This document shows positions 1 to 17,868 of a stretch of DNA of 19,989 bases, piece after piece. Position numbers and translations under genes: made by a program. Position 1 is the stretch's first letter. Each line of letters starts with the position of its first letter. The notes under the pieces were generated by a model that saw only the letters and a program-made list of their open reading frames with translations, was not told the DNA's origin and searched no databases. The DNA is from Bacteroidaceae bacterium (GTDB lineage: Bacteria > Bacteroidota > Bacteroidia > Bacteroidales > Bacteroidaceae): assembly GCA_902362595.1 (NCBI GenBank), contig CABIXF010000057.1, positions 1 through 19,989 on the forward strand, read 5' to 3'.

Positions 1-90
1 TGAAAAATCTGACATGGCAAAATCCTGAGCAACTTTTTGTTGCTCAGGTACTTAAAAAGTTATATTTGTAATAGTGTTGCGGAATTAAGG
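1..90. other. Non-IS66 sequence abutting the broken transposase
   Basis: Transposase homology stops at about position 91, and what lies to the left does not read as IS66. It contains a perfect 10-bp inverted repeat (CCTGAGCAAC at 24-33, its complement at 39-48) with a five-T loop. This could be a terminator, or a subterminal hairpin of another mobile element that interrupted IS66. I cannot identify the element. The left edge of the window cuts it. Confidence 0.5.
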
Positions 91-1252
91 ATATAGATCC
101 CATAAAATGATCAAGGAAGGTCTTTGCCACATCAGATGCTCTGCTGCCGTTATTGTAATGATAATAAACCAACTTGACATGCTTTGCAAAGAAAGCCCAT
201 AAGTACTTTCTCCTGTAAGCCTTACCTTCCGGTGTTTCAACTCCAACGAGTTCGGTAGTCTCATCAACCATAAGGTATTTTGCCTGTTGTACAAACTTCT
301 TGAAGACATCTTCCATAAACTCCCTAAGCCTGGAGATTCCGTTGTGGATATAGCTGTTCAGCGTGGTATTGCTTATATGGATGCCTTCTCTTGCAAGCAG
401 TCTTATCTGTCTGTTCTCAGGCATGCTGAAGTCATATTTCAGACAAAGCAGACGGGCAAGCAGTTCAGGAGAGAAGATTCCTCCAAGGTTTTTCAAGGGA
501 TGCTCCATCGTGTTAGTGAAAGTGCCGTCTGCAAGCTTTACCCTTGCCACCTTGTACACATGTTCCACGTTATGGGCACGCACATGTTCTATAAACCTGT
601 ATTCCCACACATCAGCCATTCCGTTGCGGTTCATAAGCCTTGCACCATCCGGGAGTTGGTAATAGTCTTCTATTTCATGTACCACTACCTTGTCCACCTT
701 CAGCCTGGTCTTTTCCGCACGTGGTGCGGTTTCCTTTCTTCTTGAAGGCTTGCTGTTCTGTGCTGTTGCGTTATCGGAAGAGGTATTGCCACCAGCTTCG
801 TTACCATTGGCCTTATTATCATCATCACCTTTCTTGTCAGAACCGTCATATTCGGACTTCTCCATTGCAGACTTGTCAATGTTACGGTTGTTCAACAGCC
901 TTCTTTGCTCAGATGTACGGCCGAAACGGTGTTTCCTGCTGTCTTCAAGCTGAAGTCTGAGATTGGATATCTCGTTTGCAAGCATCATGTTCACCTCGTC
1001 TTTTGCTTCAAGCTGCTTCCTCATAAGTTCCATTTCTTTCCTGTAATGTTCAACCGTGGTTGATTGCTTTTCGAGGGATTCTTTGAGGTCATTGATTGTA
1101 TCAATCAGAGTTTTTGAGTTCTCCTTGTTGGATTTTTCAATAGACTCAAGCCTCGCAATCAGTTCTTTATTCTGTTTGCGAAGCCCTGCTTTTTCCTCAT
1201 TCGCCAGACCCAGCTGGCAGCAAAGTAACTCGTATGCTCTTTCATCAATCAT
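44..1252 (-). pseudogene. IS66-family transposase, C-terminally truncated
   Basis: This is the IS66 DDE transposase. The visible protein has a long N-terminal coiled coil (about residues 20-105), a charged Asp/Asn-rich linker (130-180), a zinc-binding-like/central region with the family signature HPLKNLGGIFSPELLARLL (251-269), and the start of the catalytic core with VDET, where D330 is the likely first catalytic Asp. The sequence then runs through FLDHFMGSI (to residue 387), where the family normally continues into a second catalytic Asp (TDGY-like). Here it changes to about 15 unrelated residues and a stop. At 402 codons it is well short of the usual 500 or more. The second Asp and the catalytic Glu are absent, so the product should not transpose. 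It follows tnpB in the same orientation. Confidence 0.9.
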
Positions 1253-1340
1253 GATATAAAGGTACGAAAAATCAGGCAGTTACGCAAACTTTTTATCGAT
1301 TATTTTTGTATTATTCCATTGTAAATCAACGCCTTATTAT

Positions 1341-1685
1341 TCATTCTTTAGGAGTTACATACATTCTGTCGACTACGATACTTTCCGTCAGGTAAGCCAT
1401 GTCAGACCACTGTATCCGGTAGCATTTTGACACCTCGTCAAACACAGGTTTCTTGAACTTTCCCATGACAGGACGTTTCTCGTAAAGCACATAAAAACCG
1501 CGTTCGTAATGAAGTATCTTGACGACCTTCCGGTTACGGGACATGAACATATATACATTGGACGCATCACTAGGGTCAAGTGACATCTCTTGCCTTATAC
1601 TTTCACACAAACGGAAGATGCCTTTCCGTAAATCCACATTACCGTTGAACAGGTAATAGTTCAGGTTAGCACTCAGTCCAAGCAT
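1341..1685 (-). CDS. tnpB: IS66 accessory protein TnpB (Orf2)
   Basis: This is the small accessory protein found in IS66 elements and needed with the transposase for efficient transposition. The 114-aa product shows the family hallmarks in order: NVDLRKGIFRLCESI near the N-terminus (residues 16-30), the VYMFMSRNRKVVKILHYE block (44-61), then RGFYVLYEKRPVMGKF (62-77). The length is normal for the family. It starts one base after the upstream tnpA-like gene ends, which suggests translational coupling, and is followed by about 88 non-coding bases before the transposase start. It looks intact. Confidence 0.92.
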   Translation of the reverse strand: MLGLSANLNYYLFNGNVDLRKGIFRLCESIRQEMSLDPSDASNVYMFMSRNRKVVKILHYERGFYVLYEKRPVMGKFKKPVFDEVSKCYRIQWSDMAYLTESIVVDRMYVTPKE

Positions 1686-2208: not shown

Positions 2209-3003
2209 TCACTTTTGTAACCTGTCTAACAGGAGCGTTCGTACCACCTCATAGCCTTCCTGCGGATTGAACTCTTCATCCGGCCGAAGCAACTGCATGG
2301 TATCACCCAAGAACTCATCATCCTGCATTTTGTCTTCCATATTGATAATAAATTCTTTGTAAGTAGGAATGTGGTCAACCACAAATTCCATATACTTCTG
2401 ATAGCAAGCCAGCACGTTGTCTATGTTGATGTCTGATGTGGTCAAGGCCTTGTACAAATCATACAAATCACGTCCTTTTCTCCGTTGGTACAAGGCACGC
2501 AGTTTTGTACCTACCAGTTCATCCAACTGGTAAGTCAGGACATCGCATTTTCCGTTATACCATTTGTTGACCACTGAAAATGGCATACGTTGCATAGGCA
2601 GTACACTGAAATGTTCCTTGCAGTTGATTTCCACTTTCAGATGAATCGGGACCACTGGTATGGATTCTGATTCCAGCCTGAAAATCAAAGTGTTGTTGTG
2701 CTTTTTCTGCTTCACTTTCGGCTCCCCGAGAAAAGCGAGTGTATCTCTTATATGGTCATAGGTCTCTTTGATCGGTTCTGCATTAATCTGTACCAAGTCA
2801 ATATCTTCACTGTACCTGGGTTGGGGCGAGAGAAACAACTTGTGTAATGCGGTCCCTCCGCGAAAAGCCAGATGGGAAGCAAGATATTCATCCTTGTATA
2901 TCTCAGTCAAGGCTCTGCATATCAGCAGATCCTGTTCGACCTGTTCGGACTCTGTCCATGGAACATGTTCGCTCCATTCTCTGATTGCAAATTCCGGTAT
3001 CAT
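2209..3003 (-). CDS. abiEii: AbiEii/AbiGii-family nucleotidyltransferase toxin
   Basis: Toxin half of an AbiE-type abortive-infection/toxin-antitoxin system. The family belongs to the DNA polymerase beta-like nucleotidyltransferases, which act in the cytoplasm; characterised relatives modify RNA, including tRNA acceptor ends. The visible motifs are FRGGTALHKLF (47-57), SEDIDLV with D67 and D69 as likely metal ligands (65-71), LKVEIN with E125 as the third acidic residue (122-127), and KLRALYQRRKGRDLYDLYK (167-185), the family's fourth motif. The length of 264 aa is normal and no catalytic motif is missing. It overlaps the antitoxin gene by four bases (ATGA), the usual coupling in these pairs. 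Base composition is more AT-rich than the element core to the right, which fits separate acquisition. Confidence 0.95.
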   Translation of the reverse strand: MIPEFAIREWSEHVPWTESEQVEQDLLICRALTEIYKDEYLASHLAFRGGTALHKLFLSPQPRYSEDIDLVQINAEPIKETYDHIRDTLAFLGEPKVKQKKHNNTLIFRLESESIPVVPIHLKVEINCKEHFSVLPMQRMPFSVVNKWYNGKCDVLTYQLDELVGTKLRALYQRRKGRDLYDLYKALTTSDINIDNVLACYQKYMEFVVDHIPTYKEFIINMEDKMQDDEFLGDTMQLLRPDEEFNPQEGYEVVRTLLLDRLQK

Positions 3004-3815
3004 TCGTCTATTTCTATTTCCTGGTTAATGATTACTTTCCATTTCTTGTCAACCTCACAACCCTCTGTCGGTTTGTTTATCTTAAACGGTATCTTTCTAA
3101 ATCTCAGTCCTGCAACCTCCATTTTGGAATATAAGGTTTCCGCCAAATCCGCTCTTTCCAATACATGTTCCAGAATATAACCCAGACGTTGAAAGACCGG
3201 TATGGCCGATGTCTTGAAAAAGGAATCATCGAGGCTGTCCAGATTCATTGTCTCAGCCAATTCATTCAACACGGTGCAGACGCGATTCAGACCACCTACA
3301 CTTTTTTCGTTTTCCACCAGGTCAACAGCTGTCAGTTCAGGACAAGAAACATTGATGTAACCTGTCTGCGTCTTGTGCTTCCTTACAAATTCCATACTTA
3401 TTTCCTTCTTGGAAAAGAACAATATGGATGTTCCGCTCTTTGAAGTATTCCTCATGCTCGGTTGTTCCACCATGAGGGAAAATGTCTGTACTCTTTGATG
3501 TGACGCGCCATAAAATGAAGCCGCATTCAAAAGAGCAACATAATATCTTTTCCCAAGATAGGACATCAGCTGATCCATATAGAAAACAGGCGGAATTACG
3601 CCTTTTAACGAATATTCCACAGGCATAATGACATAAAAATTACGCCAGGGAGAAACAATCTTCGCTTTGGCGGCCAAACGGTACAATGCGGTTTTGATAT
3701 ATACCTTACCCGCTGAAGGGAATTGCTTTTCTATATCCTCTTTAGTGAAGGTGTAATATCCCCTTACTTCCCGGCTTTCAATCCAATCTGACAAAGTTTC
3801 TATATGCTTCTTCAT
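3000..3815 (-). CDS. abiEi: AbiEi-family antitoxin and autorepressor
   Basis: Antitoxin partner of the downstream nucleotidyltransferase. In the characterised type IV AbiE systems AbiEi counteracts the toxin and also represses its own promoter through an N-terminal winged helix. Here residues 1-70 (including YYTFTKEDIEKQFP and KTALYRLAAKAKIV) read as such a winged helix. The following YSLKGVIPP-x-FYMDQLMSYL-x-YYVALLNAASFYGASHQ block (88-128) is the AbiEi signature. The C-terminal half (170-271) is the remaining antitoxin domain, ending in a charged tail. The length of 271 aa is typical. The gene precedes the toxin and overlaps it by four bases. Two adjacent inverted repeats immediately upstream of the start are candidate binding sites for the protein itself. 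Confidence 0.92.
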   Translation of the reverse strand: MKKHIETLSDWIESREVRGYYTFTKEDIEKQFPSAGKVYIKTALYRLAAKAKIVSPWRNFYVIMPVEYSLKGVIPPVFYMDQLMSYLGKRYYVALLNAASFYGASHQRVQTFSLMVEQPSMRNTSKSGTSILFFSKKEISMEFVRKHKTQTGYINVSCPELTAVDLVENEKSVGGLNRVCTVLNELAETMNLDSLDDSFFKTSAIPVFQRLGYILEHVLERADLAETLYSKMEVAGLRFRKIPFKINKPTEGCEVDKKWKVIINQEIEIDE

Positions 3816-6737: not shown

Positions 6738-8837
6738 ATGATAGCAATCATCGCAGAAAAGCCGAGTGTAGGCATGGACATAGCCCGTGTAGTCGGGGCT
6801 GATACAAGAAATGACGGCTACTGTTCCGGCAACGGATATATGGTAACATGGGCACTGGGACACCTCGTGTCGCTGGCCATGCCGGACACTTACGGTTACA
6901 CGAAAACAGCGGCGGAGGACCTGCCGATGCTGCCGGACCCGTTCCGCCTGGTCTCCCGACAGGTGCGCACGGACAGGGGAATGGTCACGGACATCGCCGC
7001 CTCGAAACAGCTGAAAGTCATAGAAAGCGTGTTCAACCGCTGTGACAGCATCATCGTGGCTACCGATGCCGGTCGCGAAGGGGAACTTATCTTCCGCTGG
7101 ATATATGCCCTCCTGGACTGCAAGAAACCGTTCCGCCGCCTGTGGATCTCCTCGCTGACCGACGAGGCCATACGGAAAGGTCTGGAGGAACTGAAGGACG
7201 GCTCGGAATACGACAGCCTGTACGCCGCAGCGGACAGCCGCGCCAAGGCGGACTGGCTGGTGGGCATGAACGCCAGCCGGGCCCTGGCCATCGTCTCCGG
7301 CTCGTCCAACAACTCAATCGGCCGTGTGCAGACGCCGACGCTCGCCATGATATGCAGCCGCTACAAGGAGAACCGCAGTTTCGTATCCACACCATACTGG
7401 CAGCTGCATGTCACCCTCAATGGAGGCACGTCACACCGCCGCTTCTTCCATCCCGCGACCTTTGACGACAGGCAGAAGGCGGAAGCCGCCTACCGCAGTC
7501 TCTCTCCCGATTCTTCGGCGACGGTCACGAAGGTGGAGCGCAGGAAAACCCTGCAACAGCCGCCGTTGCTCTACGACCTGACGGCACTCCAGAAGGACTG
7601 CAACGTGCACCTCGACCTGCCCGCGGCAAAGACGCTGGACATCGCCCAGTCGCTCTACGAGAAGAAGCTCATTTCCTACCCGAGAACGGGAAGCCGCTAC
7701 ATCCCGCACGACGTGATGGCCTGTGTGCCCGGTCTGCTGGAAAGGATTATGGCCATGCCCGGATTCGCCACAAGTGCCGGAATCCTTGACTTTGCGCGTC
7801 TCAACACCCGCAGCGTGGACGACAGGAAAGTGACGGACCACCATGCCCTCATCACGACCGGCATCGCACCCGAAGGGCTTTCCGAGGCGGAGGAGGCCGT
7901 CTATACGCTGATAGCCGGACGTATGCTGGAGGCGTTCTCGCCCTACTGCGAGAAGGAAATGCTGCTCATGGAGTGCCGTCTGGAGGGGATGGACTTCCGC
8001 TCGAAGGGTTCTACCGTGGTCAGCCCGGGATGGCGCGGCATCTTTGGCCGGAAAGAGGACCGGGAGGATGACGAGCCGGAAACCGACGAGGGTACGGCCG
8101 TATTTGCCGAAGGGGACACGGTTCCGGTTTCAGGATTCGGACTGGCCCAGAAGAAGACCGTGCCCAGACCGCTCTATACCGAAGCCACGCTGCTGGCGGC
8201 CATGGAGACCTGCGGCAGGGAGATAGCCGACGAACAGGCACGCGAGGCCGTGAAGGAGCTGGGCATCGGCACGCCCGCCACAAGAGCCGCCATCATCACC
8301 ACACTGTTCAAACGTGACTATATCGCCCGCTCCGGCAAGAGCATCGTCCCCACGGAAAAGGGACTCCATATCTACGATGCGGTGAAGGACATGCTCGTGG
8401 CGGATGTTTCCCTGACAGGAAGCTGGGAGAAAACCCTGCTCCAGATAGAGCGGCACACGCTCGGACCGGACACGTTCATGGCATCCATCACGGACTACAC
8501 CCGCAAGGCTACCCGTGAAATCCTGAACCTCAGCCTTCCGGCAGCAGCCGCCCGCACATTCACCTGTCCCAAATGCAAGACCGGACACATCATCGTCAGG
8601 GAGAAGAGTGCCCGCTGTGACAATAAAGGGTGCGGACTGACCGTGTACCGCAGATTCCTGAACAAGGAACTGACGGACCAGCATCTGGAACAGCTTTTCT
8701 CTTCCGGTTCCACACGGCTCATCAAGGGATTCAAGGGAAAGAAGGGTGTGGCCTTCGACGCTTCGGTCACCTTTGACGCCGGGTTCACCCTGACACTCTC
8801 GTTCCCCAAAAACGGGAACGGCAGGAAAAGGAAATGA
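6738..8837 (+). CDS. topB: DNA topoisomerase III (type IA)
   Basis: A type IA topoisomerase that cleaves one strand through a 5'-phosphotyrosine link and relaxes or decatenates single-strand-containing DNA. The N-terminal Toprim domain shows AEKPS (E7) and ATDAGREGE (108-116), in which the second Asp of the usual DxD is Gly, a variant I recall in other TopB proteins. SIGRVQTPT (193-201) and the active site LISYPRTGSRY (Y314 the likely nucleophile) follow. Near the C-terminus is a four-cysteine zinc ribbon (CPKCKTGHI...CDNKGCG, about 609-635). At 699 aa it is full length. Homologues are standard cargo of Bacteroidales conjugative transposons; the CTnDOT exc gene encodes such an enzyme. A role in excision or transfer intermediates is plausible but inferred. 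The start is preceded by an AT-rich run. Confidence 0.97.
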   Translation: MIAIIAEKPSVGMDIARVVGADTRNDGYCSGNGYMVTWALGHLVSLAMPDTYGYTKTAAEDLPMLPDPFRLVSRQVRTDRGMVTDIAASKQLKVIESVFNRCDSIIVATDAGREGELIFRWIYALLDCKKPFRRLWISSLTDEAIRKGLEELKDGSEYDSLYAAADSRAKADWLVGMNASRALAIVSGSSNNSIGRVQTPTLAMICSRYKENRSFVSTPYWQLHVTLNGGTSHRRFFHPATFDDRQKAEAAYRSLSPDSSATVTKVERRKTLQQPPLLYDLTALQKDCNVHLDLPAAKTLDIAQSLYEKKLISYPRTGSRYIPHDVMACVPGLLERIMAMPGFATSAGILDFARLNTRSVDDRKVTDHHALITTGIAPEGLSEAEEAVYTLIAGRMLEAFSPYCEKEMLLMECRLEGMDFRSKGSTVVSPGWRGIFGRKEDREDDEPETDEGTAVFAEGDTVPVSGFGLAQKKTVPRPLYTEATLLAAMETCGREIADEQAREAVKELGIGTPATRAAIITTLFKRDYIARSGKSIVPTEKGLHIYDAVKDMLVADVSLTGSWEKTLLQIERHTLGPDTFMASITDYTRKATREILNLSLPAAAARTFTCPKCKTGHIIVREKSARCDNKGCGLTVYRRFLNKELTDQHLEQLFSSGSTRLIKGFKGKKGVAFDASVTFDAGFTLTLSFPKNGNGRKRK

Positions 8838-9863: not shown

Positions 9864-10874
9864 ATGTTTTTTACAGCAATCCACCAGATGATGACGGAAA
9901 GCGTGGACCTCACGATCGTCATCCGCAAGACAAACGGACAACTGACCGTTTCCACATTGCCCAAATCGAACGGACTCAAGGACGAGGCCCAGAACCACAT
10001 CGTGCCGCTGACAGTTACGGGAACGCCGCAGGAACTTGACACCGGATTCCTGCAGGCAGTCACAAGACCGATACAGAAAGCCTGCGGGCTGATCTCCAAC
10101 ATGGCACAGTTCGAGGCTCAGGCGGACAAAGCCGCCGCAAGCAGCAAGGCCGCCAAGGATGCCAAATCCAAGGAAACGAAGGAGGAGCGCGAGAAACGGG
10201 AAAAGTACGAGAAACTGATGAAGAAGGCGGAAGAACTGACTGCCGCCAGAAACCACCGGGAAGCCGTCAGCGTGTTTACACAGGCGAAAGCACACGCGAA
10301 TGCCGCCCAGCTGAAGGAAATCGAGGAGAAGATAAAGGCGGCCGACACGGAAATGAACCGGGGAAGCCTCTTCGACCTGATGGAACAGGAAGCACAGCCG
10401 GAACCTTCTGTACAGCAGCAACAGCCGGCATACACACAGGCAACGGAACAGAGAAATCCGCAACCGCAACGTCCGCAACAGCCGGCACCGCAGCAGACAT
10501 ACACGCGGAGACCGTCACAACCGATGCCGGGACAGGCTCAGCCCGCACCGCAGAGACCACAACAGGCATACACGCAGCATCCGCAACAGCCAGGAATATG
10601 GCCGTCGCAACAACAGCCGCAGGCAAGACCGCAGATACAGCCGCACGCGCAATATGTCCAGCGGACAGGAGGACAGCAGTCTTCCCAACCTCAATATCCG
10701 CCGCAGCCTGAAATTCAGGACTGGCAGGAAGAACGGTTCATGCAGGAGGACGAACAGCAACCGTACCTCTCCGATCAGGAACACCCCGCATACAGTGAGA
10801 AGGACTACGAGGAATACATCGATTTCCCGCAGTCCATGCTGGAACCCAAGTATTCACCTTATCAGACAGTTTAA
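9864..10874 (+). CDS. PRTRC system protein E, with Gln/Pro-rich tail
   Basis: First recognisable member of a PRTRC (ParB-related, ThiF-related cassette) operon. The N-terminal 75 residues (MFFTAIHQMMTESVDLTIVI..., LTVSTLPKSNG) match the family E N-terminus as I know it; its function is unknown. Residues 81-161 are a very charged, probably helical/coiled-coil segment rich in Ala, Lys and Glu. Residues about 176-290 are a low-complexity Gln/Pro tract with recurring QQPxYTQ-like units. The end (293-336) is acidic and tyrosine-rich. The 336-aa length is largely this tail, which looks disordered and may be a scaffold. It is followed three bases later by PRTRC-C. Cytoplasmic by sequence. Confidence 0.85.
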   Translation: MFFTAIHQMMTESVDLTIVIRKTNGQLTVSTLPKSNGLKDEAQNHIVPLTVTGTPQELDTGFLQAVTRPIQKACGLISNMAQFEAQADKAAASSKAAKDAKSKETKEEREKREKYEKLMKKAEELTAARNHREAVSVFTQAKAHANAAQLKEIEEKIKAADTEMNRGSLFDLMEQEAQPEPSVQQQQPAYTQATEQRNPQPQRPQQPAPQQTYTRRPSQPMPGQAQPAPQRPQQAYTQHPQQPGIWPSQQQPQARPQIQPHAQYVQRTGGQQSSQPQYPPQPEIQDWQEERFMQEDEQQPYLSDQEHPAYSEKDYEEYIDFPQSMLEPKYSPYQTV

Positions 10875-10877
10875 GAC

Positions 10878-11099
10878 ATGGCACTCGAAATCAAAGGAAT
10901 GACACGCTCATTCAAATTCAAGAAAGGAACGGAGTATATAACCCTTCAGGACCCGGATCCGAACATCTCGCCGGACATGGTCATGAGCTACTATTCGAAC
11001 ATGTACCCGGAACTGACGACGGCTACCGTTCACGGACCGGTCATCAGGGAGGACATGACAGAATATGAGTTCAAGACTACTATCGGAACAAAAGGATAA
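10878..11099 (+). CDS. PRTRC system protein C (ubiquitin-like)
   Basis: A 73-aa protein of the PRTRC-C family, which domain databases group with prokaryotic ubiquitin-like (beta-grasp) proteins. The conserved features are FKFKKGTEYITLQDPDPNIS (12-31), the helix SPDMVMSYYSNMYPELTTA (31-49) and a C-terminal strand ending YEFKTTIGTKG. The chain ends in GTKG, so a C-terminal glycine is exposed without processing, as a conjugatable or adenylatable ubiquitin-like protein would need. Its E2-like and E1-like partners by family (PRTRC-B and ThiF) lie downstream in the same operon. That it is actually conjugated to anything is not shown for this family as far as I know. Confidence 0.9.
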   Translation: MALEIKGMTRSFKFKKGTEYITLQDPDPNISPDMVMSYYSNMYPELTTATVHGPVIREDMTEYEFKTTIGTKG

Positions 11100-11104
11100 A
11101 GGAT

Positions 11105-11272
11105 ATGGCAAAGGACAACAGAAAAAAGAAGAAATCATGTGTACCATTGGACGGATATCAGGCGGAACAGCTCGCGAGACTTATCATTGCGGAAACAGAA
11201 AGGAAGGTGCATTACGGCACGGAAAGAAAGAAACGGATTGCGGCACCCAGCGGTGCCGTAATTCTTTTCTGA
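11105..11272 (+). CDS. 55-aa basic ORF, possible N-terminus of PRTRC-F
   Basis: A short frame starting six bases after the PRTRC-C stop: MAKDNRKKKKSC, then a helical segment (DGYQAEQLARLIIAETERKV) and an end of RIAAPSGAVILF. Amino-acid usage is sensible here, whereas the overlapping frame of the next gene is Cys- and Gly-rich over the same bases, so this frame is the likely coding one. It stops at TGA (11270-11272) exactly where credible PRTRC-F sequence begins in the -1 frame. One extra T in the TTTT run at 11265-11268 would join them as AVILF-LNATFLPIS. It is either a separate coupled gene or the displaced N-terminus of PRTRC-F. Confidence 0.6.
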   Translation: MAKDNRKKKKSCVPLDGYQAEQLARLIIAETERKVHYGTERKKRIAAPSGAVILF

Positions 11273-12219
11273 ACGCTACGTTCTTGCCGATATCCCCATC
11301 GGAACTGTTCACGGACGGTACTGACGGGAAGCCGCACAATCTTATCACGCAGGAAAACTATGAGTACCTGCGTGATTCCTTTTTCAGATATGCACTCCTC
11401 ATGAAGAAGGAGGCGGTACATACACCGGGACGAACGCCCGGCGAAAGCATTGCCAGACTGCACGAAGAGATGTGTAACCTTGTAGGCAATGACATGAATG
11501 TCAACATTGAGCAGGACGAAGAAAGACTCCTGTTCCGTCTCTGGAAATGTCATGAATGGGGAGAACTCACGTTGTATTACTTCCCGACGAAGTTCATGGA
11601 AAGGCTCGGACCGGAACTGAGACGCATATCCGTCACCTTCATCCACAACCTGATGCAGGCGAACGGGATAAACACCATACTGGACGAGGATGACATGGAC
11701 TATGCCCTGACACTGATGTCTGAGGATGATTCGGGTGAAACGGCATCTGACCGGAAAAAGAGGCGGCGGCTCCTGCACTCCTATGAGGAAGGCAGGATAC
11801 ATGCCCTGTTACGCCGGGTGGAACGCAAATCCTATTACAAGAATCTGCCGAAGGCAATCGACCGATATAAGCCGAAGGACGGGTACGAACAGTCACTGCT
11901 CTCTGTCATGAAGGAGGGGCTGGAGTTCCTTACACCTGAACACGGCATCATGGAATACGGCTACGATCCCTTCTACGAGGAAGAACCGGACTTTTTGCCC
12001 ATGTATCTCAGCAAGCAGATCCGGGTCATCTATAACTGCACCGACATGATAACGGAATATCTCACCGACTATTACAACTCCTACAGCCAGGAGACATACG
12101 ACATCATTCCGGTCACTACCTGTGACTTGTCTCCGGAAACGGAGGAACTGTTCCGCATGGACGACTATCCGGAACGTTTCTTCAAATGGGCGGAAAAATT
12201 CATCAACATCACAGTATAA
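11269..12219 (+). CDS. PRTRC system protein F
   Basis: Family PRTRC-F, of unknown function and always found with the other PRTRC genes. The credible protein begins near LNATFLPISPSELFTDG and continues about 316 aa, through a region with REEMCNL-like and WGELTLYYFPTKFMERLGP segments, a charged middle (SEDDSGETASDRKKRRRLL) and an aromatic C-terminal half (YNCTDMITEYLTDYYNSYSQ). No enzyme motif is visible. The start is uncertain. There is no ATG at the right place; candidates are CTG at 11269 (overlapping the previous stop as CTGA), TTG at 11284, or a frame join with the 55-aa ORF. In-frame ATGs at 11137 and 11065 lie inside other reading frames and give implausible N-termini. I placed the start at the CTG provisionally. 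Confidence 0.75.
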   Translation: MNATFLPISPSELFTDGTDGKPHNLITQENYEYLRDSFFRYALLMKKEAVHTPGRTPGESIARLHEEMCNLVGNDMNVNIEQDEERLLFRLWKCHEWGELTLYYFPTKFMERLGPELRRISVTFIHNLMQANGINTILDEDDMDYALTLMSEDDSGETASDRKKRRRLLHSYEEGRIHALLRRVERKSYYKNLPKAIDRYKPKDGYEQSLLSVMKEGLEFLTPEHGIMEYGYDPFYEEEPDFLPMYLSKQIRVIYNCTDMITEYLTDYYNSYSQETYDIIPVTTCDLSPETEELFRMDDYPERFFKWAEKFINITV

Positions 12220-12235
12220 ACCAATCTGAAAGCAT

Positions 12236-12937
12236 ATGATAGACAGCAACGAACTGACCAGAAAAATCAAGACGCCGCTCAACCCCAGGGCGGCACTGAT
12301 TGCCTATGCCTCGGAGAATGACAGGAACTTTTTCCTTGAAATCCGTGAAATTGACGACCGGGGAAACATGACGGAAGGAAGACCGGTAACCCTGGAATTC
12401 ATGAACACGCTCGTGAAGGGATATTCGGAAAGACACAGCACCACTCCATATGGAAAGATACCCGACAACCTGTTGTATTGCGACCCGCGCAAGGGCAGCG
12501 AGAGATACGTGTGGTACAACCCTCCGCACAAGAGGATGATGTTCTTCAGCCCCGCGCTCAAAATAGAAAACGCGGAATATTACCTGCCGGGAGTGATCTA
12601 TGAGGCCGGAGAACACGGAATGAGAATCTATGCCTACAAGGAAAATGTTCCCGGACCGGATACCGTGCTGTACGCCGCGCCCTTCTTCAACGTGACAGGT
12701 TCCAGCGTATGTCTGGGAAACGCCAGGATAGAGCTGCCGAAGGACCTGACCTATGAGAAGCTGCTGCAGTACTGGGAAAGGAAATTCTGGCTTACGGAAT
12801 TCACCCACCTGGGAGGGAACGGGAACCCGACAAGGTCAAACCTCGTGCTGGTGACAAAGGCGGCACGGGACAGGGACTTCAACCTCGACGAACTGAAGCA
12901 ACTGAACAACATGAAACTTAAAGACATACTGAAATGA
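12236..12937 (+). CDS. PRTRC system protein B (E2-like)
   Basis: A 233-aa PRTRC-B protein. Domain databases relate this family to prokaryotic E2/UBC-like proteins (Prok-E2_D). The conserved WYNPPHKRMMFFSPAL (93-108), LPGVIYE (117-123), AAPFFNVTGSSVCLGNARI (147-165) and FTHLGG (189-194) segments are all present. C159 in SSVCLGNA is the obvious candidate for an active-site cysteine. Two tryptophans (W180, W185) follow in the QYWERKFWLTEFTH helix. It begins 17 bases after PRTRC-F and overlaps the ThiF gene by four bases (ATGA), so B and ThiF are translationally coupled. Thioester chemistry has not been demonstrated for this protein; the role is inferred from family and neighbours. Confidence 0.9.
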   Translation: MIDSNELTRKIKTPLNPRAALIAYASENDRNFFLEIREIDDRGNMTEGRPVTLEFMNTLVKGYSERHSTTPYGKIPDNLLYCDPRKGSERYVWYNPPHKRMMFFSPALKIENAEYYLPGVIYEAGEHGMRIYAYKENVPGPDTVLYAAPFFNVTGSSVCLGNARIELPKDLTYEKLLQYWERKFWLTEFTHLGGNGNPTRSNLVLVTKAARDRDFNLDELKQLNNMKLKDILK

Positions 12938-13722
12938 AAAGAGTACATTACATCGACAACTATCTCATAAACCCGCAGCATCCGGTAACGGTAAACCTTA
13001 TCGGAGCGGGAGGAACAGGCTCGCAGGTACTTACCTGCCTGGCCAGACTTGACACGGCACTGAGGGGACTCGGACACCCCGGGCTGTTTATAACCGTGTA
13101 TGATTCCGACATCGTGACGGAGGCCAACATCGGGCGACAGCTCTTCAGCCCCTCGGACATCGGCCTGAACAAGGCACAGTGTCTTGTCACACGCATGAAC
13201 AACTTCTTCGGCAACGACTGGAAGGCGGTACCGGACATCTATCCGGCAGCCCTGAAGGACGCTAGACGGGATAATCTGGCCAACATAACGATCACCTGCA
13301 CGGACAACATAAAGTCACGTATCGACCTGTGGAACATACTGAAAGCCGTGCCGGTATCGGAATACAGAAGCCACGAGACGCCCCTGTACTGGATGGACTT
13401 TGGGAATACACAGGACACGGGACAGGTCGTCCTCGGAACCGTACCGAAAAAAATCAGGCAGCCGGAATCCAAGCTGTACGAAACGGTGGAGTCACTGAAA
13501 GTGATTACCCGCTACGTGAAATACGCGAAAGTAAAGGAGAAAGACTCGGGACCGAGCTGCTCACTGGCAGAGGCCCTGGAAAAGCAGGACCTGTTCATCA
13601 ACTCCACATTGGCACAGCTCGGCTGCAACATCCTGTGGAAAATGTTCCGCAACGGCATGATCGAGCATTACGGGCTGTACCTGAACCTTTCTACCTTGAA
13701 AATGAATCCGATACCTGTCTGA
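12934..13722 (+). CDS. PRTRC system ThiF-family (E1-like) enzyme
   Basis: A 262-aa E1/ThiF-fold adenylyltransferase. These enzymes use ATP to adenylate the C-terminal glycine of a ubiquitin-like protein. The nucleotide-binding loop is LIGAGGTGSQ (22-31). DSDIV (57-61) and EANIGRQLF (63-71) with K80 form the ATP/Mg site, and CTDNIKSR (122-129) is the usual second metal/nucleotide segment. C209 in GPSCSLAEALEKQDLF is a candidate catalytic cysteine. No zinc-binding Cys pairs of the kind seen in MoeB are evident. It closes the operon and overlaps PRTRC-B by four bases. The likely substrate is the PRTRC-C protein encoded upstream. The gene is complete, and about 490 non-coding bases follow. Confidence 0.93.
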   Translation: MKRVHYIDNYLINPQHPVTVNLIGAGGTGSQVLTCLARLDTALRGLGHPGLFITVYDSDIVTEANIGRQLFSPSDIGLNKAQCLVTRMNNFFGNDWKAVPDIYPAALKDARRDNLANITITCTDNIKSRIDLWNILKAVPVSEYRSHETPLYWMDFGNTQDTGQVVLGTVPKKIRQPESKLYETVESLKVITRYVKYAKVKEKDSGPSCSLAEALEKQDLFINSTLAQLGCNILWKMFRNGMIEHYGLYLNLSTLKMNPIPV

Positions 13723-14213: not shown

Positions 14214-16586
14214 ATGAGGAAGCTAAGTGGAATTTCATTGCAGACAAAAATCATAGCTGGTTATCTGATATTGCTGGCAGTCATCGGAAGCATGATTGCC
14301 ATACTGCTTCATGAGCGCAAAAAAATGCATGACATAGCAAACGGAACCGCAGAAATACGTGAGATCCGGAATGAAGTCAACGCCATACGCCGCCACATTG
14401 TCGGAATCGCATTGCTGGGGGAATCCGCCATCGGATGGGACAGCGAGGACTTCTCAGCATACCAGAACAGGCGCCTGCACATAGACAGCCTGCTGGAACG
14501 GATGAAAGACAACGGCCTGGATCTGGTAAGCCACGAACAGATAGACACATTGCGACGACTGTTGGAAGAGAAGGAAAGCCGCCTGTATCATCTTACAACG
14601 GTTTTTCAGGAGCAGAGGACATCAGACAGCCTGCTCTACAACCATCTCCCCGAGGTCATCGACAAGAGTACCCGTACACGCACGGTCACCCGCCGGAAAA
14701 ACGGCATAGCAGGTTTCTTTGGCAAGAAGGAAACCGTACAGGTGCCGGCTTCCACGACAGAACTGCGGCAGCTCAACCGCCAGTTGATAACCATGCAGGA
14801 AGAGCATGACAGACATATCGGACTCTATATTGACAGTCTGCGTTTGCAAAACCTGAAACTGAACAAAAGACTGAACTCCTTCATCACCGCCCTTGACGAA
14901 CAGGTCCAGGCCGCTTTCCAAAACCGGGAAACAAGGATTGCGGAGGCAAAGGCACTTTCATTCAAGCTGTTTGCGGCCACCATCATCGTTGCCATTGTCC
15001 TGCTGATCATATCCCATCTTGTCATACAGAGGGACATACGGCGCAAGGAACATGACCGCAGCAGACTGGTGGATACGCTCAAACAGAACCGGGAACTGTC
15101 CGAAATGAGAAAGCGTATCATCGTAACGCTTTCCCATGACATAAGGGGACCATTGAACGCCATCTGCGGCAGTGCGGAACTGGCCATTGACACCAGGGAA
15201 AGAAAACGCCGCAACACTTACCTTGACAACATCATCAAGTCCTCACGCCATATCACAAGGCTTGCCAACAGCCTGCTTGACCTCTCCAGACTGGACGAAG
15301 CGAAGGAATCACTGAACAGGATACCTTTCAACCTGAAAGCCTTCGTCGACGACATTAACGAGGAATACACCTGTGCGGCCAATGACAAGGGGCTGGTCTT
15401 CAAAACGGAAGCAGAAGGCACCGACATAGTGGTATACGGAGATGCGGACCGTATCCGTCAGGTGGCGGACAACCTGCTGACTAACGCTATCAAGTTCACC
15501 CGCAACGGAACAGTCTGTTTCCGGGTAAGCCACAAGGACGTGGTAATGACCATGGAGGTGGAGGACTCGGGCATCGGCATGGACAAGGAAACGATAGAAC
15601 GCATATTCAGACCGTTTGAACGGGCGGCGCCAGACATTTCGCCGGAAGGCTTCGGGCTCGGCCTTCCGATAACCAAGGGACTTGTGAACCTGCTCGGCGG
15701 CAGTATTTCCGTATCGAGCCATGTCGGGGAAGGCAGTCTGTTCCACACGGAAATCCCCCTCGCCATTTCCACTGAACCGGTAAAGAACCACGTCATGCCG
15801 ACCGTGAAAAGGCTCAGCCTTCCAAAGCGTATCATCCTTGTGGACGACGATCCGATACAACTGCGCATCGTCATGGAGATGCTGGAGCGCAACGGTGTAT
15901 CATGCCGTACCTGCATCGGGGCGAAGGACGTGGTGGGCGAACTGCGGAAAGAACCCTACGACTTACTGCTGACAGACATCCAGATGCACGGGACCAGCGG
16001 TTTTGACTTGCTATATCTCCTGCGTCATTCCAATATCGGAAATTCACGCACCATTCCGGTTGCCGCCATGACTGCCCGCAACGACGTGGACGAAAGCCGC
16101 TATACTGAAGCCGGCTTTTCCGGCTGCATACAGAAACCGTTCTCCATGAACGAGCTGCAGGCTTTCCTTTCCTCCATAATGGAAAGGTCGGGCCAGCGGC
16201 AGGAACAGAAGGCGGATTTCAATGCCTTAGCCGCAGAGACGGGGGATATGGAATGGATGCTCAATGCTTTCATTGAGGAATCGATCGACAACAGGACGGA
16301 ACTGAAAAAAGCCCTTGAAAGCATGAAAACGGACACGGAGCGGATGAAAAACACCCTGCACCGCATGTATCCCACCTGGGAACAGCTGGGAGTGGCCTGT
16401 GAACTGGAAACATACAGCAGAATCCTACATGACGATACTTCCGATGATCTGACCATCAGTACATATACAGAGACGGTCATCGGAAGAATAGACCGGCTGG
16501 TAGGCGATGCGAAGAACCTGCTTTCGGAAATCAGAAAACTTGACTTAAAGAACTATACGGATGAAACACAGAATACTCATAGTTGA
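14214..16586 (+). CDS. rteA: RteA-like hybrid sensor histidine kinase
   Basis: A membrane-bound hybrid kinase of 790 aa. Two transmembrane helices (about 13-32 and 252-271) flank a mostly helical sensor region of about 220 residues facing the periplasm. HisKA follows with VTLSHDIRGPLNAICGS (H308 the phosphoacceptor). The ATPase domain has DNLLTNAIKFTRNG (N424), DSGIGMD (451-457) and GFGLGLPITKG (479-489). A receiver domain (539-650) has D544-D546, phosphoacceptor D588, T620 and K641. A C-terminal HPt-like domain (668-770) has H716 in NTLHRMYPTWEQLG as the likely phosphotransfer histidine. A full H-D-H relay is thus in one chain. The next gene overlaps by 26 bases and encodes the response regulator. 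In CTnDOT, RteA senses the transfer-inducing signal; here the architecture and partner match, but the ligand is unknown and tetQ is not in the window. Confidence 0.85.
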   Translation: MRKLSGISLQTKIIAGYLILLAVIGSMIAILLHERKKMHDIANGTAEIREIRNEVNAIRRHIVGIALLGESAIGWDSEDFSAYQNRRLHIDSLLERMKDNGLDLVSHEQIDTLRRLLEEKESRLYHLTTVFQEQRTSDSLLYNHLPEVIDKSTRTRTVTRRKNGIAGFFGKKETVQVPASTTELRQLNRQLITMQEEHDRHIGLYIDSLRLQNLKLNKRLNSFITALDEQVQAAFQNRETRIAEAKALSFKLFAATIIVAIVLLIISHLVIQRDIRRKEHDRSRLVDTLKQNRELSEMRKRIIVTLSHDIRGPLNAICGSAELAIDTRERKRRNTYLDNIIKSSRHITRLANSLLDLSRLDEAKESLNRIPFNLKAFVDDINEEYTCAANDKGLVFKTEAEGTDIVVYGDADRIRQVADNLLTNAIKFTRNGTVCFRVSHKDVVMTMEVEDSGIGMDKETIERIFRPFERAAPDISPEGFGLGLPITKGLVNLLGGSISVSSHVGEGSLFHTEIPLAISTEPVKNHVMPTVKRLSLPKRIILVDDDPIQLRIVMEMLERNGVSCRTCIGAKDVVGELRKEPYDLLLTDIQMHGTSGFDLLYLLRHSNIGNSRTIPVAAMTARNDVDESRYTEAGFSGCIQKPFSMNELQAFLSSIMERSGQRQEQKADFNALAAETGDMEWMLNAFIEESIDNRTELKKALESMKTDTERMKNTLHRMYPTWEQLGVACELETYSRILHDDTSDDLTISTYTETVIGRIDRLVGDAKNLLSEIRKLDLKNYTDETQNTHS

Positions 16587-17868
16587 AGACAATATCCTGC
16601 TGGCCGGACAACAAAAGAAATGGTTTGAGAAATCCGGCTATGAAGCAGTGACGACGATAGACGAACCCGGTGCAAGGCGGCTTCTGAAAAAGGAGCCTTT
16701 CGATCTTGTCCTTTCCGATGTCCGTCTTCCGCAGGGGGACGGCATATCGCTGCTCGAATGGATGCAGAGAGAACGGATAGACGTTCCCTTCATCATCATG
16801 ACCGGATATGCCTCCGTGTCGGATGCCGTCCGTGCCATCAAGATGGGGGCAAAAGACTATCTGGCCAAGCCTGTTCAGATGGATGAACTGCAAAGTCTGA
16901 TAAAGAACATCCTGCATCCTCGCTCAGTCATATACGGAAAGGACAAGGGCATCCTTCCCAGGAACAGCCGACAGATGAAAGAAGTGGAAAATCTAGCTCG
17001 TACGGTCGCTCCATTTGACATTTCCGTACTGATTCTTGGTCCGAACGGTGCCGGCAAGGAATCCGTAGCGCAACGTATCCATTATTCCAGCGAGCGCAGG
17101 GAAAAGCCGTTCCTGGCAGTAAACTGCGGGGTCATTCCCAAAGAGCTTGCGCCCTCGCTCTTTTTCGGGCATGTGAAGGGGACGTTTACGGGGGCGGACA
17201 CAAACCGTGAAGGCTTCTTTGAAACGGCCCGTGGCGGGACCCTGTTCCTTGACGAAGTAGGAACATTGTCCATGGAGGTACAAAGCATGCTCCTGCGTAC
17301 CTTGCAGGAAGGCAGCTATATCCCTATAGGCAGCAACCGGGAGAAACACTCCGACGTAAGGATAGTGGCGGCAACCAACGAGGACCTTCAGCTGGCCATC
17401 AGGGAGAGACGCTTCCGGGAAGACCTCTACCACCGTCTGGGGGAATTTGAAATCGTCCTGCCGGCCCTGCATGAATGCCCGGAGGACATACTTCCGCTTG
17501 CCGAACATTTCAGGGAAAAGTTTTCCAGGGAACTCAAACGGCAGACCGACGGATTCAGCCGTGAGGCAGAGCAACAGCTGCTCTCATACGGCTGGCCGGG
17601 AAATGTACGGGAATTGCAGAACAAGATCAAACGAGCCGTCCTGCTGTCCAAACAGCCGATAATCGAAACGGCTTGTTTGAACATAAGAATCGAGGATGAG
17701 AAAGAGAAAATCTTCCTTTTTCCGGAAAATGAGACACAGGAAAAACAGTCCATCATCAGGGCCTTGAAAATATGCACGGGCAACCGGAAACGGACGGCGG
17801 AGATGCTGCACATTGATCCTTCTACGTTGTACAGAAAAATGAAGAAATACGGACTGAACGACAAATAA
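16561..17868 (+). CDS. rteB: RteB-like sigma-54-dependent response regulator
   Basis: An NtrC-type activator of 435 aa. The receiver domain (1-120) has D10, phosphoacceptor D53 (VLSDVRLPQGDG), T81 and K103. The AAA+ domain (about 135-365) has a variant Walker A GPNGAGKE (160-167, where GESGTGKE is common), the sigma-54 contact loop GTFTGA (207-212, with Thr in place of the usual Ala at the second position), Walker B GGTLFLDEVG (225-234), AATNEDL (270-276) and LSYGWPGNVRELQN (341-354). A Fis-type helix-turn-helix closes it (RKRTAEMLHIDPSTLYRKMK, 409-428). All activator parts are present, so it should need sigma-54 and drive -24/-12 promoters. CTnDOT RteB has this architecture and activates rteC. 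It is translationally coupled to the kinase. Confidence 0.88.
   Translation: MKHRILIVEDNILLAGQQKKWFEKSGYEAVTTIDEPGARRLLKKEPFDLVLSDVRLPQGDGISLLEWMQRERIDVPFIIMTGYASVSDAVRAIKMGAKDYLAKPVQMDELQSLIKNILHPRSVIYGKDKGILPRNSRQMKEVENLARTVAPFDISVLILGPNGAGKESVAQRIHYSSERREKPFLAVNCGVIPKELAPSLFFGHVKGTFTGADTNREGFFETARGGTLFLDEVGTLSMEVQSMLLRTLQEGSYIPIGSNREKHSDVRIVAATNEDLQLAIRERRFREDLYHRLGEFEIVLPALHECPEDILPLAEHFREKFSRELKRQTDGFSREAEQQLLSYGWPGNVRELQNKIKRAVLLSKQPIIETACLNIRIEDEKEKIFLFPENETQEKQSIIRALKICTGNRKRTAEMLHIDPSTLYRKMKKYGLNDK

What the first reader, a model, noticed from the sequence alone, without database searches (positions are those of the whole stretch)
10878..13722. Reduced ubiquitin-like conjugation module (PRTRC) on a conjugative element, lacking JAB protease and ParB
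PRTRC-C (Ubl-like, ending GTKG), PRTRC-B (E2-like, C159) and ThiF (E1-like, GAGGTG loop and C209) stand in one coupled operon. PRTRC cassettes as named also include ParB-related and JAB/Mov34 (protein A) members; neither is visible here. The Ubl already ends in Gly, so a maturation protease would not be needed. A minimal E1-E2-Ubl relay that modifies a transfer or defence partner is possible. The Gln/Pro-rich PRTRC-E and the unknown PRTRC-F could be scaffold or target.
Basis: partly seen in the sequence, partly recalled or inferred. Interest (0 to 1): 0.75.

Follow-up and report, generated by a model that had tools for sequence, protein, structure and literature searches.

The report
Protease-free bacterial ubiquitin-like operon with overlapping gene
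A mobile DNA element in a gut-type bacterium carries the parts of a small ubiquitin-like tagging machine that lacks the usual trimming enzyme, as do its sampled relatives, and it also holds a small, mostly unnoticed gene folded into the start of its neighbour.

The parts
9864..10874 (+). PRTRC protein E, 336 aa, conserved N-terminal domain and Gln/Pro-rich C-terminal half
   Evidence: PF19556 193.8 bits; TIGR03741 73.1 bits, cut-off 37.95
10878..11099 (+). PRTRC protein C, ubiquitin-like protein, 73 aa, ends GTKG
   Evidence: PF14454 94.8 bits; TIGR03738 68.3 bits, cut-off 45.95; AlphaFold beta-beta-helix-beta-beta, mean pLDDT 83.4; structural rows include ubiquitin, SUMO and a molybdopterin synthase chain
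11105..11272 (+). Fa: small conserved gene, 55 aa, directly after C, overlapping the F-like gene out of frame; no match in Pfam (E <= 1) or NCBIfam (E <= 1)
11137..12219 (+). F-like gene, 360 aa from the conserved in-frame ATG; overlaps Fa by 136 nt (-1 frame)
   Evidence: an in-frame ATG at this distance in 32 of 55 loci and at -108 to -180 nt in 55 of 55; position of PRTRC_F but no match to TIGR03742
11241..11258 (+). possible RNA hairpin just before the Fa stop (7-bp stem, 4-nt loop) in Bacteroidales
   Evidence: 101 of 112 cells paired against 41-61 of 112 in slid controls; 2 of the 16 rows (L065, L077) are not Bacteroidales and lack it
12236..12937 (+). PRTRC protein B, E2-like, 233 aa
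12710..12712 (+). codon of B Cys159
   Evidence: 56 of 56 distinct homologues
12806..12808 (+). codon of B His191; fits the downstream His that Iyer 2006 describes for this E2 family
   Evidence: 54 of 56; PMC1779556 section 14
12934..13722 (+). PRTRC ThiF, E1-like, 262 aa; overlaps the B stop (ATGA)
   Evidence: TIGR03736 243.1 bits, cut-off 144.75
13558..13560 (+). codon of ThiF Cys209 in a P-S-C-S motif
   Evidence: 60 of 63 (2 gaps, 1 Ile)
6738..8837 (+). topoisomerase III-like gene upstream of the operon
   Evidence: PF01131 370.8 bits; below the NCBIfam topoisomerase III cut-offs

Best explanation
The locus is a PRTRC cassette in the form that the sampled Bacteroidota carry: E, C, Fa, F-like, B, ThiF, without the JAB protein A and without the PRTRC ParB. 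Proposed mechanism: ThiF adenylates the C-terminal Gly of C and takes it over on Cys209 (inferred). C is passed to Cys159 of B (inferred) and from there to an amine on a partner protein (inferred). Because C is made ending in Gly, no processing is needed; without a JAB the tag is not removed by this cassette, so modification is one-way or short-lived for other reasons (inferred). Fa and F are the cassette's own partners, either substrates or adaptors (inferred). The adjoining genes here (topoisomerase III) and in relatives (ParB; dnaN in several) suggest a target among DNA replication or segregation proteins of the element (weak inference). Shown: the gene set, its conservation, the conserved Cys residues, no match for A and no PRTRC ParB over cut-off, and coding constraint on Fa together with an open overlapping F frame.
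Confidence: 0.55

Rival explanations
1. A JAB-type protease acts in trans (RadC family or another host JAB), so the cassette is a normal reversible system.
For: Three RadC genes in the own genome, all over cut-off. PRTRC_A of Pelobacter lies apart from its cassette on the same plasmid.
Against: No PRTRC_A and no Prok-JAB match in the own genome. RadC also rings in 8 of 14 control genomes, so it is not tied to the cassette.
Confidence: 0.15
2. C is a sulfur carrier or an activated peptide for small-molecule chemistry, and no protein is conjugated.
For: ThiF and ThiS/MoaD kinship of such parts (PMC1779556, passages). No E3 was identified.
Against: A dedicated E2-like protein whose Cys is invariant in 56 of 56 and whose His is kept in 54 of 56 homologues. 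None of the 20 window proteins scanned against Pfam is a metabolic enzyme of that kind.
Confidence: 0.12
3. Fa is not a separate protein but the N-terminal part of F, joined by a programmed -1 frameshift at the TTY-TRA end of Fa.
For: Conservation passes from the Fa frame to the F frame at the Fa stop; the PRTRC_F model begins there, at residue 36 of the Cupriavidus protein; slippery-looking NTT TTY TRA in 53 of 55 loci, the exceptions being L076 and L102.
Against: F frame open with an in-frame ATG in 55 of 55 loci, which a frameshift does not need. Burkholderia, Aromatoleum, Azospira, Piscinibacter and Tunicatimonas lack the slippery bases. Sphingopyxis and Novosphingobium have the other frame relation, judged by the annotated F.
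Confidence: 0.12
4. The cassette is a decaying remnant of the full PRTRC set.
For: It lacks A and PRTRC ParB; some relatives have broken frames (L061, L062, L063 and L067) or only part of ThiF in the fetched stretch, and L092 has ThiF without C or B near by.
Against: Same gene set and order, conserved catalytic residues and two open overlapping frames from Bacteroidales to Flavobacterium and Pedobacter loci.
Confidence: 0.06

Closest known systems
Iyer, Burroughs and Aravind 2006, operon type 6d (PMC1779556)
   Same: Small Ub-like protein with C-terminal Gly, E1-like protein, E2-like protein with a downstream His, extra helical protein; B. thetaiotaomicron (Bthe) is in its species list (passages and section 14 read)
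   Different: That text says that a JAB gene was always fused or adjacent; here none was found in the genome. Fa is not mentioned in the parts that I read. I did not search the B. thetaiotaomicron genome itself.
PRTRC cassette of proteobacterial plasmids (Cupriavidus pMOL28, Piscinibacter, Burkholderia)
   Same: Order E-C-F-B-ThiF; the small Fa frame lies between C and F in Cupriavidus and Burkholderia
   Different: They carry ParB before E and JAB protein A between B and ThiF
BilABCD (review PMC11354881, passages read)
   Same: Ubl, E2, JAB and E1 in one operon
   Different: BilA has two Ubl domains and is trimmed by the JAB BilC; here a single Ubl that ends in Gly and no JAB
Caldiarchaeum CsUb/CsRpn11 (PMC6043591, passages read)
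   Same: A model for JAMM trimming of a Ubl precursor at Gly, as proposed here for PRTRC_A on tailed C
   Different: Archaeal; its system has a small-RING protein according to PMC5654768 (search listing and opening of the abstract only)
Bacteroides thetaiotaomicron BT2645-BT2649 (PMC10434189, two table passages read)
   Same: PRTRC E (BT2645), hypothetical (BT2647), E2 family D and ThiF (BT2648-49), with a DUF4099 gene (BT2643) near by
   Different: Only listed in an iron-response table; no mechanism in the passages read; BT2646 is not in them

Membership tests
PRTRC cassette (NCBIfam TIGR03734-03742) | PRTRC ThiF over cut-off | tested here: met
   243.1 bits against 144.75
PRTRC cassette (NCBIfam TIGR03734-03742) | Ubl protein C and protein E over cut-off | tested here: met
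   C 68.3 against 45.95, E 73.1 against 37.95
PRTRC cassette (NCBIfam TIGR03734-03742) | Protein B over cut-off | tested here: inconclusive
   87.1 against 131.45 in NCBIfam, so below; but Prok-E2_D of Pfam is met, 127.5 against 25
PRTRC cassette (NCBIfam TIGR03734-03742) | Protein F | tested here: inconclusive
   no NCBIfam match at E <= 1; same position; profile probability 11.7% to proteobacterial F
PRTRC cassette (NCBIfam TIGR03734-03742) | JAB protein A | tested here: not met
   no match in the own genome; 0 of 43 Bacteroidota genomes
PRTRC cassette (NCBIfam TIGR03734-03742) | PRTRC ParB | tested here: not met
   own genome below cut-off only; over cut-off in 3 of 32 handles, the Pelobacter, Cupriavidus and Piscinibacter plasmids
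PRTRC cassette (NCBIfam TIGR03734-03742) | PRTRC protein D (family name recalled) | not tested
   no search was made for it
Ubiquitin-like conjugation system | Ubl with beta-grasp fold and C-terminal Gly | tested here: met
Ubiquitin-like conjugation system | E2 with catalytic Cys | tested here: inconclusive
Ubiquitin-like conjugation system | Thioester transfer to a target | not testable with these tools
   needs biochemistry
Conjugative element of CTnDOT type | Tra genes, relaxase, coupling protein, integrase on the same contig | tested here: met
   TraG, TraJ, TraM, DUF4138, relaxase, coupling protein and two integrases on contig C80; ends of the element not mapped

The most novel reading that the evidence does not exclude
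Fa is a dedicated partner of the Ubl. In lineages with the JAB it can be made as a Ubl-Fa fusion that the JAB cuts at the Gly, like ubiquitin-ribosomal protein precursors. In lineages without the JAB the fusion is split into two coupled genes, so the protease became dispensable. Fa would then be the main acceptor or adaptor of the conjugation, and its gene has become locked into an out-of-frame overlap with F.
Probability: 0.25. Interest if true: 0.8.

Novelty: new variant of a known kind. Interest (0 to 1): 0.5.

Why it matters
It gives a minimal Ubl-E1-E2 set, without protease and in one operon, that could be rebuilt in a laboratory strain. It yields a simple rule to test (JAB present: the Ubl may carry a tail; JAB absent: the Ubl ends in Gly) and points to an overlooked conserved gene that studies of PRTRC would otherwise leave out.

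Tried and rejected
Programmed -1 frameshift as the first idea for Fa/F: weakened by the open F frame with ATG in 55 of 55 loci and by loci without slippery bases. Solved-structure search by sequence: ThiF gave only eukaryotic E1 matches at E 0.0024 and worse; B and C gave nothing credible. Fused tails as Fa, shuffles as good out of 2000: Rhodoferax 2 (beta profile) and 136 (gamma); Rhodanobacter 16 (gamma), not reported with the other two profiles; Xanthomonas 201 (gamma), 564 (beta), 37 (Bacteroidota profile); Polaromonas 926 (gamma), 1127 (beta); Azonexus 38 (gamma), although a separate Fa exists there; Manganitrophus 597 (Bacteroidota profile). So only Rhodoferax and, less so, Rhodanobacter are supported. 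Pairwise: Rhodanobacter tail against P. syringae Fa z 4.8, Xanthomonas tail against Rhodanobacter tail z 6.7, Rhodoferax tail against Aromatoleum Fa z 3.2, out of 253 pairs of which about one was expected at that level by chance. In one search the Rhodoferax tail was cut at the wrong KG; one search uses the right one. Homology of Fa between Bacteroidota and beta-proteobacteria is weak (hhalign 32%) and not seen for gamma (0.1%). The z values (also F frame, z 9-18) ignore shared ancestry. Dropped from the tail count: L080, L112, L119 and L123, where no C was identified beside ThiF. In one search one printed line (range of the open-frame chance) is void because the stored file lacked it; the range given here is. 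Paper search on PRTRC also matched plasmid names of Rhizobium tropici and gave nothing on the cassette there.
Full report
What is there. The window holds a PRTRC-type cassette on the plus strand: E 9864-10874, C 10878-11099, an F-like gene, B 12236-12937 and ThiF 12934-13722. B and ThiF overlap by ATGA.

Absence of A and ParB. In the own genome PRTRC_A has no match and Prok-JAB has none. PRTRC ParB gives only a sub-cut-off match on another contig. RadC has three matches, none on the contig of the window. PRTRC_A has no match in 25 further Bacteroidota genomes and 3 Bacteroidota plasmid records and in 17 more genomes of the phylum: 0 of 43 genomes with the own one. In 38 of the 43 the fetched stretch showed C, B and ThiF together; L067, L069, L072 and L073 showed part of ThiF, and L092 ThiF alone. 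Species may be shared between the two sets. The same model finds A in 3 of 4 other plasmid records, 12 of 19 (three records repeated; one match below cut-off) and 4 of 6. In 395 genomes of the phylum, 16 carry PRTRC ThiF over cut-off. A has no match anywhere on the plasmid records of Alteromonas, Marinobacter, P. putida pWW53 and Aeromonas, nor on those of a P. aeruginosa and a P. syringae plasmid.

The tail rule. Outside Bacteroidota, in the 22 loci where a C was taken, C has residues beyond its KG end in 10 of 16 cassettes whose record has A: Cupriavidus, Burkholderia, Paraburkholderia, Polaromonas, Rhodanobacter, Xanthomonas, Azonexus, Rhodoferax, Manganitrophus, Pseudanabaena. No tail: Piscinibacter, Aromatoleum, Sphingopyxis, Novosphingobium, Azospira. 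Pelobacter ends in TKA and was counted as without a tail. Of 6 cassettes without A, none has a tail. In Bacteroidota-type loci 48 of 48 distinct C end in KG (counted, with the window and two loci in MAGs labelled as Firmicutes). The one-sided chance of 0 in 6 is 0.012, without correction for kinship; three of the six are Pseudomonas. The Alteromonas and Pseudanabaena proteins taken as C have no Prok_Ub match, and the Aeromonas one is below cut-off; without the first two the count is 9 of 15 against 0 of 5. Since 5 of 16 with A have a C that already ends in Gly, A must also have another task there, presumably deconjugation (inference).

Fa, a conserved small gene. Between C and the conserved part of F lies a 55-aa frame, 11105-11272. 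Comparable frames of 53-69 aa were found by rule in 55 of 58 loci that had C, B and ThiF hits. The three misses are L080, L081 and L101; L101 does have the frame, but further from C. Of the 55, 51 are from Bacteroidota, two from MAGs labelled as Firmicutes, and the others are Pelobacter and Cupriavidus; several are near-identical copies. The F-like frame is open through the overlap and has an in-frame ATG 108-180 nt before the Fa end in all 55, against 32 of 165, 274 of 1021 and 277 of 1153 control windows with an open -1 frame in C, B and ThiF. Under Fa-only coding the chance of an open F frame averages 0.22 (0.00-0.62; lowest in the Flavobacterium-like group, highest in the loci nearest the window). 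With F residues fixed, random recoding predicts far less Fa similarity (z 21-36 in groups of 15, 9 and 6 dereplicated loci); the reverse test gives z 9-18 for the F frame; neither corrects for ancestry. Differences by Fa codon position are 0.272, 0.221 and 0.398 for positions 1, 2 and 3, as for a coding frame. At four-fold sites the overlap differs as often as the C gene (605 of 1187 against 1234 of 2447), so the F-frame stretch is kept open but its residues are hardly constrained. Fa of the window has no Pfam or NCBIfam match; 75 protein clusters match it, without Pfam domain except one partial that also holds Prok_Ub, and where named they are called hypothetical. It is not annotated in the Parabacteroides plasmid L075 or in Cupriavidus, but frames at its place are annotated as hypothetical genes in Novosphingobium and Azospira.

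Fa beyond Bacteroidota. Frames at the same place occur in Pelobacter, Cupriavidus, Burkholderia, Aromatoleum, Azospira, Sphingopyxis, Novosphingobium, Marinobacter and Pseudomonas plasmids. Sequence support links several of them within proteobacterial groups (z up to 30), but only weakly to Bacteroidota (hhalign 32% to beta, 0.1% to gamma). In Polaromonas, Manganitrophus, Rhodanobacter and Pseudanabaena I saw no convincing separate Fa (for the first three). In Rhodoferax and Rhodanobacter the space between C and F is closed and C carries a tail of 71 and 61 residues. The Rhodoferax tail matches the beta Fa profile better than all but 2 of 2000 shuffles, and the Rhodanobacter tail the gamma profile better than all but 16 of 2000. 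This hints at Ubl-Fa fusions in cassettes that have the JAB. Polaromonas and Xanthomonas tails did not pass that test.

Setting. The contig carries CTnDOT-type Tra genes, a relaxase, a coupling protein, a ParA-like gene and two integrases. The window itself has a topoisomerase III gene upstream and a hybrid kinase and a sigma-54 regulator downstream. In relatives, genes near the cassette include ParB, and dnaN in Azospira, Aeromonas, P. aeruginosa and P. syringae.

Mechanism and novelty. Best reading: ThiF activates C, B takes it over, and a partner is modified, without trimming and without removal by this cassette. Only the parts are shown; each transfer step is inferred. The operon type is in print (Iyer 2006), and B. 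thetaiotaomicron carries such genes by annotation (PMC10434189). In the listings of my searches of the open-access library I saw no description of a JAB-free PRTRC form, of the tail rule or of Fa; subscription papers are not covered. I therefore call it a new variant of a known kind.

Noticed in passing
window 11241-11258: Possible RNA hairpin just before the Fa stop in Bacteroidales; its central pair occurs as T-G (6), G-T (5), A-T (4) and once as C-T among 16 rows, of which 2 outside Bacteroidales lack the hairpin.
   Followed up: partly
window 2209-3815, minus strand: AbiEi/AbiEii type IV toxin-antitoxin pair on the same element.
   Followed up: no
window 44-1685, minus strand: IS66 transposase fragment and IS66 Orf2-like gene at the edge of the window.
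   Followed up: no
window 14214-17868: Hybrid histidine kinase and sigma-54 response regulator just after the operon, like RteA/RteB of CTnDOT (names recalled).
   Followed up: no
L120 628-1755; L121 796-1950; L131 9780-10892; L132 10011-11120: A dnaN (sliding clamp) gene close to the PRTRC cassette in four plasmids, in two of them just upstream of E or its presumed counterpart.
   Followed up: no
L033, L034: ThiF identical or nearly so (100% and 99.6%) to that of the window in Mediterranea and Parabacteroides genomes, a sign of recent transfer between genera.
   Followed up: no
L052, L053: Bacteroidales-type cassettes in MAGs labelled Acetatifactor and Clostridium; perhaps misbinned contigs.
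   Followed up: no
L076 15059-17259: A second Ubl-type operon (multiubiquitin, ThiF, DUF6527) on the same Tunicatimonas plasmid as its PRTRC cassette.
   Followed up: no
L092: A genome of the window's own genus (G351) has PRTRC ThiF over cut-off, but no C or B match in the 10-kb stretch around it.
   Followed up: no
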